64,000 nucleotides of DNA from positions 2,666,001 through 2,730,000 of the forward strand of contig NC_017243.1 in the NCBI RefSeq assembly GCF_000223215.1. Direction: 5' to 3'. This DNA is from Brachyspira intermedia PWS/A (GTDB taxonomy: Bacteria > Spirochaetota > Brachyspiria > Brachyspirales > Brachyspiraceae). The translations under genes were made by a program, and so were the position numbers. The notes beneath the pieces are model-generated. The model made no database searches. It saw only the letters and a list, made by a program, of their open reading frames with translations, and was not told where the DNA came from. Shown here piece after piece: positions 11,095 to 58,446 of this stretch (positions are counted from its first letter, which is position 1; each line of letters begins with the position of its first letter).

Positions 11095-11135
11095 AAAGTG
11101 AAAGTAAATTTTACTTTCACTTGCCCACCCTTTTT
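11095..11135 (+). terminator. hisD terminator
   Basis: The perfect palindrome AAGTGAAAGTAAA / TTTTACTTTCACTT (11097-11122) starts 19 bp after the hisD stop. A T5 lies 9 bp further on, inside the following 311-bp element, so termination strength is uncertain. Confidence 0.6.
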
Positions 11136-11434
11136 GATTTATAACTTCAATTTGTCATTTTTAGATTATTTTTCTTTTTAGCTTTTACTGTAATTATAAA
11201 GCCCACCCTAGTGTTATTTAAATTTATAATCTCCTCAGCGCACGCTGAACAAAATAAAAAATATAAATTGATTATAAAATTATAATTCTAATCATATATA
11301 AAATTTAGTTCACCGTGCGTTGAATGCATTTTAAATTTAATAAAAACTTGGGCGGGTGCTATAATTTCTTATTAAACTATAAAGATAATAAAAATTAGAA
11401 TTCCAAAATAAAATAAAAAATAATAAAGGGCGGG
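11124..11434. repeat. 311-bp paired-motif intergenic element, copy A
   Basis: A non-coding block bounded by CCCACCC (11124-11130) and GGGCGGG (11428-11434). An inner pair is CCCACCCTAG (from 11202) and GGGCGGGTGC (11350-11359), and a central pair is GCGCACGCTGAAC (about 11238-11250) and GTTCACCGTGCG (11308-11319). A second element with the same motifs in the same order and almost the same spacing occurs at 57110-57421. This occupies most of the 527-bp gap between hisD and the transporter; the remainder (11435-11604) is plain AT-rich sequence. Confidence 0.8.
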
Positions 11435-11604
11435 ATATGTAATTAAAGCTAAATAGAAAATATTACAATTTTTAATAATATATACCTAAACAATTATATT
11501 TTTTCAAAAATAATTTCTTACAAAATATAGTCGTTTAAGTATAAAATAAAAATATATTTATATTACTCTATTAATATAAATATATTTATTAATTATCAAA
11601 AATA

Positions 11605-53432: not shown

Positions 53433-54431
53433 ATGAAAAAAATGATAAATAATATTATATTTATAGTCTTAATAGCATTTGTATATTCTTGTAATAATTC
53501 TTCAACAAATCCATCATCAAATAATCCAATAGAGGCACCTATTGAAAATGTTACTGACTACATTGTAAAAGCAAATACTACAGAAGCTGATATAGAAGCT
53601 AAAATGAAGAAATATTTTGAAGATAAAGGTTCTTATGCAGTATTTTTAGAAGATACAAAAGAAAACATTGCTAATAATAAAACATTAGAAATAATAAATA
53701 CTATAATCAAAAAAGATGTATACACAAAAGACGGAGTATATCTTGATTTAAGCAGAACAACAATTACAGAATTAGCAGATAATGTATTTAATGGAAATAG
53801 AAATTTAAATAAAATTACATTGCCGAATACTATAACAACTATAGGTGGATATGCATTTAGGGATTGTTCTAGTTTGAGAGAAATCAACTTCCCATCTTCT
53901 ATAACTCAAATTAAAGGCGGAGCTTTTCAGAGCTGTTTAAGTTTGCATACTGCTGATTTAAGCCAAACAAAATTAACCGTATTAGAACCTTATTTATTTA
54001 ATGACTGTTCTAGTTTAATTAAGGCTGTAATTCCTGAAACTGTTGTTGATATAAAAAACAACTCATTTGGCGATTGTTCTGCATTAAAAGAAATCAATTT
54101 ACCATCTAAGTTAATTAGAATGTATCCAGAGTCATTCGTTGGTTGCAAATCATTAGAGAAAATCAGTTTGCCTAGTACATTAATTTATATGTATGGTTAT
54201 ACTTTTGGTGAATGTGCTTCATTAAAAGATGTAGAATATTTAGGAAATAATCCCGCTACCATAAAAGTAGCAAATGGAGCAGTATTTGATGGATATACTG
54301 AAAATAGTACTCCTGTAAACTTATATCTTCCTAATGTTACTGCTGATCCAAAAGACGGAAGTTGGAATAATTTCTTGGGTTATGATTGGAGTAAGCAAAC
54401 TATAAATTATGGTAAGACTATGCCAAAATAA
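53433..54431 (+). CDS. BspA-like leucine-rich repeat lipoprotein
   Basis: A 332-residue surface lipoprotein with lipobox FVYSC (Cys20), then a linker, and from about residue 105 five to six BspA/LRR_5-type repeats (LNKITLPNTITTIGGYAF, LREINFPSSITQIKGGAF, LKEINLPSKLIRMYPESF). It ends with a domain (NLYLPNVTADPKDGSWNNFL...MPK) that is shared with the next gene. BspA-type proteins mediate adhesion in host-associated bacteria; here that is family inference. AGCGGAGG precedes the ATG. Confidence 0.85.
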   Translation: MKKMINNIIFIVLIAFVYSCNNSSTNPSSNNPIEAPIENVTDYIVKANTTEADIEAKMKKYFEDKGSYAVFLEDTKENIANNKTLEIINTIIKKDVYTKDGVYLDLSRTTITELADNVFNGNRNLNKITLPNTITTIGGYAFRDCSSLREINFPSSITQIKGGAFQSCLSLHTADLSQTKLTVLEPYLFNDCSSLIKAVIPETVVDIKNNSFGDCSALKEINLPSKLIRMYPESFVGCKSLEKISLPSTLIYMYGYTFGECASLKDVEYLGNNPATIKVANGAVFDGYTENSTPVNLYLPNVTADPKDGSWNNFLGYDWSKQTINYGKTMPK

Positions 54432-54449
54432 TAAGGGAAAAACATATAA

Positions 54450-55121
54450 ATGAAAAAAGCTATAATATTATTATTCATTTTTTTTATTTTGATTTCTTGT
54501 AAATACAAAATAACTTCTCCAAAAATACAATATGAATGCGGTACAACAGACAATATAAATGATAATAATAATTTATATACTGTTGGTGCCAATTCTACTG
54601 AAGAAGAAATAAGAACAGCATTAGCAAATAATAAAGAAATATCTGGTAAAAATATTATAGTTGTGACAGGCTATATTGATAATTCATCTAAAATTTTTGA
54701 TAATATAAAAACGGTTATTCAAAATGAAAAAAATATAATATTAGATTTATCAGGAAGTAATTTAAATGCAGATAATAAATTTACATTAAATGATGTTACT
54801 TCATTAATAACTATATTGCTTCCTAATATGCAAGACATTATTGAGAATTTTTTAAGCGGATGTACTTCATTAACAAGTATTCAAATACCTAATGGAATGA
54901 CAATAATAAAGGATTCATGCTTCAATAATTGTACTTCTATAAAAAATGTTGAATATTTAGGGACTGCTGCAAATGCTATAACAGCAACTCCATTTACTGA
55001 TTCAAAGCCTACAGATTTATATTTACCTAATGTTTCTTCAGATCCTAATGATGGCAGTTGGGATAATTTTTTAAATGTTGCTTGGGCTAATATACATTAT
55101 GGTGCTTCTATGCCTAAATAA
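54450..55121 (+). CDS. BspA-like lipoprotein, shorter paralogue
   Basis: A 223-residue lipoprotein with lipobox FILISC (Cys17) and a shorter repeat region of about two LRR_5 units (TSIQIPNGMTIIKDSCF, and the SIKNVEYLGTA strand). The C-terminal module DLYLPNVSSDPNDGSWDNFL...MPK matches that of the upstream paralogue. It starts 18 bp after that gene's stop, so both belong to one operon. Adhesion or surface exposure is inferred from the family. Confidence 0.8.
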   Translation: MKKAIILLFIFFILISCKYKITSPKIQYECGTTDNINDNNNLYTVGANSTEEEIRTALANNKEISGKNIIVVTGYIDNSSKIFDNIKTVIQNEKNIILDLSGSNLNADNKFTLNDVTSLITILLPNMQDIIENFLSGCTSLTSIQIPNGMTIIKDSCFNNCTSIKNVEYLGTAANAITATPFTDSKPTDLYLPNVSSDPNDGSWDNFLNVAWANIHYGASMPK

Positions 55122-57012: not shown

Positions 57013-57109
57013 CGATATTTTTCATCATAATAAATCACAATAAATTTGAAGGTTTATGATACAGATTATAATAGTTATATACTTTTATATTGTCAATTTT
57101 ATTCTCACT

Positions 57110-57421
57110 CCCCGCCCTTTTTTCTTATTAATTTTAATAAGAATATTTAAGTATAGTTTTCTTAAAAATCTAAAAAGAAAATATAGCACCCACCCTAGAT
57201 TTATTTAATTTTTAGTAACATTACCGCACGCAGAATAAAATAAAAAATGTAGTTTAATTATAATTCTAATTTTAATCATGTATAAAATTTAGTTCACCGT
57301 GCGTAAAGTAAATTTTTAAATTTAACAAACACTTGGGCGGGTGCTAAAATTTCTAATTATTACAATAAATATAATTAAAACTGAAATTTATAAATAAAAC
57401 AATAAGACATAAAGGGCGGGG
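57110..57421. repeat. 312-bp paired-motif intergenic element, copy B
   Basis: Second copy of the element at 11124-11434. Outer motifs CCCCGCCC (57110-57117) and GGGCGGGG (57414-57421) pair perfectly. Inner motifs GCACCCACCC (57186-57195) and GGGCGGGTGC (57335-57344) pair with one mismatch, and central GCACG and CACCGTGCG motifs are also present. It has no ORF. On the minus strand the mismatched positions become G-U pairs in RNA, which favours a minus-strand transcript. It accounts for most of the 520-bp gap between the phosphohexomutase and AbiF genes. Confidence 0.8.
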
Positions 57422-57450
57422 TATGTAAATAAAATTACATAATATAATAA

Positions 57451-58344
57451 CTACTTTTTTAAATAATCTTTCCATTCTTTTGGAAATCCTATATGAACAA
57501 AATCTATATAATTTTCATATTCATCAACAAGATTAATAAAATTTGGAAGTATATCATAATCCCATTTATCTTTAAAAGGATACAATTCCTTAACTGCCAA
57601 AATAGCTCCCCATAATTTCCTTTCTGAATTATTATTTAAATGATTCATTTCTTTTGGAATAGATGAAAAAATTCTATAATAAAGTCTACCATAATGAGCA
57701 CAAATATTTCTTAAATCCGTACAGCAACGAAGCCAACTTTCTAATTTTTTAGCAGTAATGTTATACATATCCTTTGCTAATATTTTCTGATCCTCTAATT
57801 TTAAATTGGCAAAAAAAGTTGATAACATACCAAAAGTAAATATTTCTGTTGCTACCCATATTGGAAAATTACTATTATATTTAGATATATGATGTTTAAC
57901 AAATAATACCTTTTGATTATTTTTTATTTCTCTTTTTAAGTTATTTATAAATTTTTTATGATAGTTTATCTTTTTATTTATATGTTTTTGATTTGAATTT
58001 GTATTATAAAAATTTTTTTCATCTAAATATCCTAATGCTCCATATTTATGAGCATGATAATATGCTATTTTAGCACGAATAAAAATTTCTATCTCTTCTA
58101 AAACATTGAACAATATAGTATGTAATTTTCTATCAAACTCATAAATATTAAAAACTTTTTCAAATGAAGTACCATAAATATAAATATCATTACTTTGTTT
58201 GAATGGCAAAAAATAAGCACTAAAACGATAATAATTTACTGATTCAAGTATAGACATACATTTTTTATCATCATTAATAATACAGCCTCTATCTTTCAAT
58301 TTTTGAAGCTGTTCTTCATATTTATAAGGACGCTTTATATCCAT
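57451..58344 (-). CDS. Abi_2 family (AbiF/AbiD-type) HEPN protein
   Basis: A 297-residue abortive-infection-type protein. The N-terminal part contains VNYYRFSAYFLPF and FEKVFNIYEFDRKLHTILFNVLEEIEIFIRAKIAYYHAHKYG, both standard Abi_2 blocks. The C-terminal part has WLRCCTDLRNICAHYGRLYYR, in which R212-N-I-C-A-H217 is the R-x4-H RNase motif of HEPN domains, so it is probably an endoribonuclease toxin. The ATG at 58344 has no Shine-Dalgarno. A promoter and a hairpin RNA occupy the leader (separate entries), suggesting a toxin with an RNA partner. No antitoxin gene is nearby. The genus-typical AT composition argues against very recent transfer. Confidence 0.85.
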   Translation of the reverse strand: MDIKRPYKYEEQLQKLKDRGCIINDDKKCMSILESVNYYRFSAYFLPFKQSNDIYIYGTSFEKVFNIYEFDRKLHTILFNVLEEIEIFIRAKIAYYHAHKYGALGYLDEKNFYNTNSNQKHINKKINYHKKFINNLKREIKNNQKVLFVKHHISKYNSNFPIWVATEIFTFGMLSTFFANLKLEDQKILAKDMYNITAKKLESWLRCCTDLRNICAHYGRLYYRIFSSIPKEMNHLNNNSERKLWGAILAVKELYPFKDKWDYDILPNFINLVDEYENYIDFVHIGFPKEWKDYLKK

Positions 58345-58359
58345 AAAATAACCAAAAAT

Positions 58360-58412
58360 AAAAAATGTCCCCCATGGTCCACGCCATAAAATGACGTGCT
58401 GGGGGTCCTGTT
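58360..58412 (-). ncRNA. Candidate small RNA in the leader of the AbiF gene
   Basis: From the inferred start at about 58412 the minus strand reads AACAGGACCCCCAGCACG, a loop, then CGTGGACCATGGGGGACA and a T6 run. CCCCCA pairs with TGGGGG and CACG with CGTG. The G5 arm ends 3 nt before the T-run, like an intrinsic terminator. The whole transcript would be only about 53 nt, ending 16 nt before the AbiF ATG. Some AbiF proteins are reported to be paired with adjacent non-coding RNAs; that this one acts as such is inference. Confidence 0.6.
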
Positions 58413-58418
58413 AATATA

Positions 58419-58446
58419 ATCATATATTATATGATGTTTTTGTCAA
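58419..58446 (-). promoter_or_regulatory. Near-consensus promoter upstream of the AbiF leader
   Basis: On the minus strand TTGACA (58446-58441) is a perfect -35 box, followed by a 16-bp spacer and the -10 box TATGAT (58424-58419, 5 of 6). Initiation is expected at about 58412-58411, immediately in front of the hairpin. Confidence 0.75.

What the first reader, a model, noticed from the sequence alone, without database searches (positions are those of the whole stretch)
57451..58446. AbiF-type HEPN toxin with a promoter firing directly into a hairpin small RNA
The protein carries the HEPN motif R212-N-I-C-A-H217 and Abi_2 blocks. Its leader has TTGACA-N16-TATGAT placed so that the transcript begins within a few bases of a hairpin (CCCCCA/TGGGGG and CACG/CGTG) followed by a T6 run, then a poorly primed ATG. 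That arrangement would make a short, abundant RNA that often terminates before the toxin gene, with only readthrough expressing the toxin. Recent work on Abi_2/AbiF proteins reports adjacent non-coding RNAs that restrain the HEPN RNase and proposes these systems as ancestors of Cas13 (recalled, not checked). Here the hairpin is a candidate for that RNA, in a genus where I know of no description.
Basis: partly seen in the sequence, partly recalled or inferred. Interest (0 to 1): 0.85.

Follow-up and report, generated by a model that had tools for sequence, protein, structure and literature searches.

The report
AbiF toxin with hairpin RNA antitoxin
A gut spirochaete (Brachyspira) carries a known kind of bacterial self-poisoning and anti-phage module: an RNA-cutting AbiF protein whose own leader RNA folds into a hairpin that very probably restrains it, and that the public RNA-family library fails to recognise.

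Summary
Window 57451-58344 (-) encodes a 297-aa Abi_2/AbiF protein with an invariant HEPN motif (R212-N-x-C-A-H217). Its only significant solved-structure match is 8vz6, the PbAbiF dimer bound to ncRNA (model TM 0.81). TTGACA-N16-TATGAT fires into a predicted 53-nt hairpin RNA ending in U6, 15 nt before the ATG.

The hairpin is homologous to the known abiF antitoxin RNA. Rfam's abiF model (RF03085) misses it. A covariance model built only from non-Brachyspira AbiF leaders finds it as the sole significant hit in the window and in the 3.3-Mb genome. In 26 Brachyspira genomes that model's nine significant hits are exactly the leaders of the nine abiF orthologues. Across 52 aligned RNAs, 98% of pair cells pair and 8 of 9 pairs show changes on both sides.

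Termination before the toxin gene is supported comparatively. Of 50 leaders read, 45 have a U-rich tract after the hairpin and no second terminator; the other five each have a separate terminator hairpin, as in C. difficile RCd22.

It is a new member of the AbiF-ncRNA (type III-like) toxin-antitoxin systems, in Spirochaetota. No transcript, toxicity or binding was measured.

The parts
58441..58446 (-). -35 element TTGACA
   Evidence: conserved in all nine orthologous leaders
58419..58424 (-). -10 element TATGAT, spacer 16
   Evidence: AT-rich -10 region conserved in the orthologous leaders
58360..58412 (-). abiF antitoxin RNA (AbiFr-like), predicted about 53 nt: AACAG 5' end, hairpin, ACA, U6. 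Both ends are predicted, not mapped
   Evidence: hold-out covariance model R1 hit 58362-58412, 37.9 bits, E 3.9e-6; next best in the window 12.1 bits; sole hit at E<=5 in the 3.3-Mb genome
58369..58405 (-). 37-nt core hairpin: outer stem CCCCCA/UGGGGG, 1-nt 5' bulge, inner stem CACGUCAU/AUGGCGUG, 3' internal loop GACCA
   Evidence: fold; same architecture as the Rfam abiF consensus shown; covariation
58360..58365 (-). U6 tract after the hairpin (ACA spacer between), probable intrinsic terminator
   Evidence: present in all nine Brachyspira orthologues; family-wide comparison
57451..58344 (-). abiF: Abi_2/AbiF HEPN protein, 297 aa, predicted RNase toxin
   Evidence: purifying selection, dN/dS about 0.08-0.4 for most pairs of Brachyspira orthologues
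57694..57711 (-). HEPN active-site motif R212-N-I-C-A-H217 codons
   Evidence: aligned with RNSCCH of PbAbiF

Best explanation
This is a one-promoter AbiF toxin-antitoxin module with an RNA antitoxin (type III-like). The promoter makes a short hairpin RNA that usually terminates at the U6 tract just after the hairpin, so the RNA is in excess. Occasional readthrough makes abiF mRNA, and a weak ribosome-binding site limits translation. AbiF forms a HEPN homodimer that would cut single-stranded RNA. The hairpin RNA binds AbiF, most likely through its stems and the GACCA internal loop, and holds it inactive. If the RNA is lost or diverted, for example by phage takeover of transcription, AbiF would be freed and would stop growth. 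Shown here: gene, motif, predicted fold, promoter sequence, hairpin, homology of the hairpin to known abiF RNAs, covariation, co-inheritance of RNA and gene. Inferred from C. difficile AbiF/RCd22 and PbAbiF/AbiFr: toxicity, dimerisation, RNA binding, neutralisation. Inferred from sequence comparison: termination at the U6 tract. Speculative: the phage trigger.
For: Protein: Abi_2 and AbiD models; about 39-40% identity over its full length to phiC2 AbiF, which is 99.88% identical to the characterised toxin AbiFCd (PMC12373285); sequence match to 8vz6 at E 3.6e-24; AlphaFold model pLDDT 94 whose only significant PDB match is 8vz6, the PbAbiF-ncRNA complex, TM 0.81; invariant R-N-x-C-A-H. RNA: a hold-out model trained on 15 non-Brachyspira leaders hits 58362-58412 as the only significant match in window and genome; in 26 Brachyspira genomes the nine significant hits are exactly the leaders of the nine orthologues; 52-RNA alignment 97.9% paired, 79 cells with both-side changes against 22.7 in shuffles, register-shifted controls at most 57.5% paired; the AACAG start, inner C-G pairs, 3' internal loop and U tract recur in phage and plasmid relatives from several phyla. 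Termination: 45 of 50 leaders have a U-rich tract after the hairpin and no second terminator; the other 5 lack the tract and have a separate terminator hairpin. Experiment elsewhere: RCd22 neutralises AbiFCd in cis and trans by direct binding, and most transcripts stop before abiF (PMC12373285).
Against: No transcript, toxicity, binding or phage phenotype measured in Brachyspira. Rfam's own abiF model gives no hit. The apical part of the Brachyspira hairpin is an extended stem lacking the CCUCU/GAU loop common in relatives, so binding details may differ. The ACA spacer between stem and U tract could weaken termination. Among Brachyspira sequences alone the covariation is modest (2 pairs with both-side changes, a number reached by 130 of 500 shuffles). 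The 45-to-5 terminator comparison is not phylogenetically independent: about three separate origins of the second terminator.
Confidence: 0.86

Rival explanations
1. The hairpin acts only in cis, as a transcription attenuator of abiF, and does not bind or inhibit the protein.
For: Hairpin plus U6 sits between promoter and gene in all nine orthologues; RCd22 deletion also raises abiF expression 17-fold in C. difficile (PMC12373285).
Against: A pure terminator needs no conserved AACAG 5' end, inner C-G pairs or asymmetric 3' internal loop, yet these recur across phyla. In five relatives termination is delegated to a separate hairpin and the abiF hairpin is kept. An apparently toxin-less RNA with promoter persists in G024.
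Confidence: 0.07
2. Decaying or domesticated gene: the locus is inactive and the hairpin an incidental remnant.
For: Patchy presence in the genus (9 of 26 genomes); weak ribosome-binding site; dN/dS rises to 0.6-0.7 among the three closest orthologues L014-L016.
Against: dN/dS 0.08-0.4 for the other pairs and intact catalytic motif in all nine orthologues; promoter and RNA conserved even in the most divergent orthologue L017.
Confidence: 0.04
3. The leader is an mRNA structure that controls translation of abiF (thermosensor or riboswitch-like), not a small RNA.
For: Hairpin ends 24 nt upstream of the ATG within the 5' UTR; the C. difficile authors speculate on riboswitch-like readthrough control (PMC12373285).
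Against: The hairpin does not sequester the start region, no Rfam family reaches its gathering score at the leader, and the sequence-structure signature is that of the abiF antitoxin RNA family.
Confidence: 0.03

Closest known systems
C. difficile AbiFCd / RCd22 (phi027 prophage; also phiC2), PMC12373285
   Same: Abi_2/AbiF toxin, about 39-40% identity over its full length to phiC2 AbiF; one sigma-A-type promoter, ncRNA with abiF hairpin(s) upstream, premature termination, readthrough for the toxin.
   Different: RCd22 carries two abiF motifs and a separate terminator hairpin (88-132 nt transcripts) inside a prophage lysis module. Here one hairpin with its own U6 tract (about 53 nt) in a chromosomal slot between recG and a phosphoglucomutase/phosphomannomutase-like gene.
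PbAbiF-AbiFr (PDB 8vz6, Prevotellaceae; described in PMC12373285 and PMC12737573)
   Same: Same protein fold (TM 0.81), HEPN motif aligned, ncRNA bound to an AbiF dimer.
   Different: 24% identity in the structural alignment; RNA sequence not compared directly; complex not tested here.
Rfam RF03085 abiF RNA
   Same: Outer 6-bp stem, 1-nt 5' bulge, inner stem of at least 3 bp, 5-6 nt 3' internal loop, location upstream of abiF.
   Different: Not detected by the Rfam model; apical loop replaced by an extended stem.
Cas13 HEPN effectors
   Same: HEPN RNase superfamily; AbiF proposed as ancestor (PMC12737573).
   Different: No CRISPR array, guide or second HEPN domain; not a Cas13.

Membership tests
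AbiF/Abi_2 HEPN toxin | Pfam Abi_2 domain over cut-off | tested here: met
   182.5 bits against 25.6
AbiF/Abi_2 HEPN toxin | HEPN Rx4-6H catalytic motif in an AbiF fold | tested here: met
   R212-N-I-C-A-H217, invariant R, N, C, A, H; fold match 8vz6 TM 0.81
AbiF/Abi_2 HEPN toxin | RNase activity and growth arrest on expression | not testable with these tools
   growth arrest is shown for AbiFCd in PMC12373285; nothing measured for this protein
abiF antitoxin RNA (RF03085 / RCd22 / AbiFr) | Matches Rfam RF03085 above gathering score | tested here: not met
   no RF03085 hit, although the same model hits relatives L037, L040 and L043 above its gathering score. A library threshold rather than a biological feature
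abiF antitoxin RNA (RF03085 / RCd22 / AbiFr) | Homologous sequence and structure under a wider family model that excludes the query genus | tested here: met
   R1 hold-out: 37.9 bits, E 3.9e-6, unique in window and genome
abiF antitoxin RNA (RF03085 / RCd22 / AbiFr) | Covarying stems across the family | tested here: met
   8 of 9 pairs with both-side changes, score 0.508 against 0.194 shuffled
Type III toxin-antitoxin (RNA antitoxin binding a protein toxin) | Antitoxin RNA and toxin co-transcribed with a terminator between | tested here: inconclusive
   the sequence layout fits; transcripts were not measured
Type III toxin-antitoxin (RNA antitoxin binding a protein toxin) | RNA binds and neutralises the protein | not testable with these tools
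   needs trans-complementation or co-purification
Type III toxin-antitoxin, ToxIN subtype | Tandem repeats in the antitoxin gene | tested here: not met
   single hairpin; most AbiF leaders read here also have one

The most novel reading that the evidence does not exclude
One hairpin performs antitoxin and terminator functions at once, and AbiF binding to the nascent hairpin changes how often transcription reads through. Toxin level would then tune its own expression, a protein-responsive attenuator built into the antitoxin.
Probability: 0.12. Interest if true: 0.6.

Novelty: new member of a known kind. Interest (0 to 1): 0.38.

Why it matters
It carries the AbiF-ncRNA system, the proposed ancestor of Cas13, into Spirochaetota with strong RNA evidence. 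It shows that the current Rfam model misses a divergent branch, so such antitoxins are under-annotated. The comparison of leaders suggests that the abiF hairpin doubles as terminator in most systems and hands this job to a second hairpin in a few, including the C. difficile system whose transcript ends were mapped. Two AbiF classes with different antitoxin hairpins occur in one genus (both in genomes G004, G020 and G021), a natural setting for testing RNA-toxin specificity.

Tried and rejected
Rfam at gathering and relaxed thresholds found no abiF hit at the locus; the best at the leader was a sub-threshold leu-phe_leader match of 25.9 bits against 70. The RF03085 search of 61 whole genomes gave only weak matches, none over cut-off, with weak matches also in 4 of 14 control genomes. 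The first Brachyspira leader alignment ignored strand and was discarded (redone). The first structure string for the Brachyspira-only alignment was mis-indexed (corrected). The L021 stretch folded missed the class-2 hairpin and was not used. The promoter score alone was rejected as evidence because chance gives as many sites. Weak R1 hits in G001, G018 and G013 (E 0.9-2.3) were judged chance: the stretches show no promoter, hairpin and U-tract arrangement of the abiF kind. Class-2 model hits of 24 bits or less were judged chance; the three read are ordinary palindromes or unrelated sequence. Literature searches found no description of AbiF in Brachyspira or other spirochaetes in the held library; the 2017 paper that I recall as the source of the abiF motif is not held.

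Full report
What is there. The reported interval holds, on the minus strand, a sigma-70-like promoter (TTGACA 58446-58441, 16-nt spacer, TATGAT 58424-58419), a hairpin, a U6 tract and a 297-aa gene. The gene is Abi_2 in Pfam (182.5 bits) and AbiD in PADLOC (327.6 bits). Its HEPN motif R212-N-I-C-A-H217 is as stated; R, N, C, A and H are invariant in a 39-sequence alignment. An AlphaFold model (pLDDT 94) has one significant match among solved structures, 8vz6, the PbAbiF dimer bound to its ncRNA (TM 0.81); sequence search also finds 8vz6 (E 3.6e-24). It is the only Abi_2 gene found in this 3.3-Mb genome. Named relatives include Brachyspira hampsonii and B. innocens.

Is the hairpin more than chance? 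Its folding energy is only moderately unusual (z -2.2 to -2.8), and a promoter match of this kind is expected by chance in AT-rich DNA, so neither settles the matter. Conservation does. All nine Brachyspira orthologues, down to about 64% protein identity, keep promoter, AACAG, hairpin, ACAUUUUUU and start codon in the same order and nearly the same spacing. The apical part of the hairpin varies with largely preserved pairing and is much shorter in the most divergent member.

Is it the known abiF RNA? Rfam's RF03085 does not report it, nor any of the other Brachyspira leaders, even at permissive E-values. The same model does find RNAs upstream of abiF in phage phiC2 and in Exiguobacterium, Metabacillus, Cytobacillus and Alicyclobacillus plasmids. 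Placed side by side the architecture is the same: an outer stem of about 6 bp, one unpaired base on the 5' side, an inner stem opening with C-G pairs, 5-6 unpaired bases on the 3' side (GACCA here, GACCA or UCCCA in relatives), then a short spacer and a run of U's. I built a covariance model from 15 leaders of other bacteria and phages, with no Brachyspira sequence. It finds 58362-58412 with 37.9 bits, E 3.9e-6; the next match in the window has 12.1 bits. In 26 Brachyspira genomes its significant matches are exactly the leaders of the nine orthologues, and no genome without the gene has a significant match. On 52 family members aligned to the model, 97.9% of pair cells pair, 8 of 9 pairs show changes on both sides, and the covariation score is 0.508 against 0.194 in shuffles and at most 0.076 in shifted registers. 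That alignment was fitted to the structure, so its counts lean towards it; the 15-sequence MAFFT alignment gives the same picture (0.461 against 0.173). Brachyspira sequences alone show little covariation because they are close.

How it works. In C. difficile the AbiF protein (phiC2's copy is 99.88% identical to it) is toxic. Its upstream RNA RCd22 is made from the same promoter, mostly stops before the gene, binds the protein and neutralises it in cis and in trans; mutation of R202/H207 abolishes toxicity (PMC12373285). The present locus has the same parts, so the same mechanism is the best explanation. One feature differs: RCd22 has two abiF hairpins and then a separate terminator, while here a single hairpin runs into U6. 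I asked whether this is general. Of 50 leaders read, 45 have a U-rich tract (6-11 T in 14 nt) directly after the hairpin and no second terminator-like hairpin. The five that lack a tract (L037 phiC2, L056, L096, L108, L110) each have a second hairpin followed by U's. This inverse relation argues that stopping transcription before the toxin is selected and that the antitoxin hairpin usually does it itself. The caveats are that L096, L108 and L110 look related, so there are about three independent cases, and that the leaders of L108, L110 and L037 were placed by eye or from the Rfam hit rather than by the R1 model.

Distribution. Eight of the nine orthologues sit in the same slot, downstream of recG; closely related genomes (for example G005 and G013, RecG C-terminal fragment 99% identical) have that slot empty. 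On a tree of the recG region presence and absence are intermixed (7 changes). Most pairs of orthologues show purifying selection (dN/dS 0.08-0.4; 0.6-0.7 between the three closest). The module therefore looks like a self-contained cassette that is gained and lost, as expected for a toxin-antitoxin or defence unit.

A second AbiF class. Other AbiF proteins in the genus are only about 31-36% identical to this one and have a different leader hairpin, CCGCAGGGCUUA...UAGCUCACUCUGCGG, of the same architecture (6 bp, 1-nt bulge, at least 3 bp, 5-nt 3' loop). Three outer pairs show changes on both sides. A model of it finds ten strong matches in the genus, most of them the sequences it was built from. 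In L024 and L029 the protein is interrupted but the RNA remains. In G024 the RNA and a promoter-like sequence stand without a recognisable AbiF gene. Keeping the antitoxin after losing the toxin is what a toxin-antitoxin reading predicts, though so few cases prove little.

Verdict. It is a new member of a known kind, with a divergent RNA that current models miss and a compact antitoxin-plus-terminator hairpin. Expression, toxicity, binding and phage defence are not shown for this locus.

Noticed in passing
window 57095-57436; second copy at about 11107-11447: A dispersed intergenic element of about 340 bp with inverted ends (AATTTTATT...CCCCGCCCTTT) lies directly downstream of abiF; 75 matching stretches in the genome, many matching in both orientations, so roughly 40-50 places. 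It is also present at the empty recG slot in other genomes.
   Followed up: partly
L020, L021, L022, L025, L027, L028 and L031 leaders: A second Brachyspira AbiF class (about 31-36% identity) with its own covarying leader hairpin, not found by Rfam.
   Followed up: partly
L179 about 1490-1560 (genome G024 C8:2120146-2120197): Apparently solitary class-2 abiF-type RNA with a promoter-like sequence but no AbiF gene downstream; a copy of the same dispersed GC-box element follows directly.
   Followed up: partly
L024 and L029: Class-2 abiF genes broken by stop codons while the antitoxin hairpin remains.
   Followed up: no
L069 1356-1404 and 1418-1463: A viral-contig AbiF leader with two abiF hairpins, as in C. 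difficile RCd22, so the two-motif layout may not be unique to C. difficile; its host was not checked.
   Followed up: no
L148 (genome G008), recG downstream region: TTTTATTTACATA occurs on both sides of the abiF cassette, possibly a trace of its insertion or of recombination.
   Followed up: no
window 53433-55121: Two adjacent predicted lipoproteins with leucine-rich-repeat-like segments and similar C-termini, probably related.
   Followed up: no
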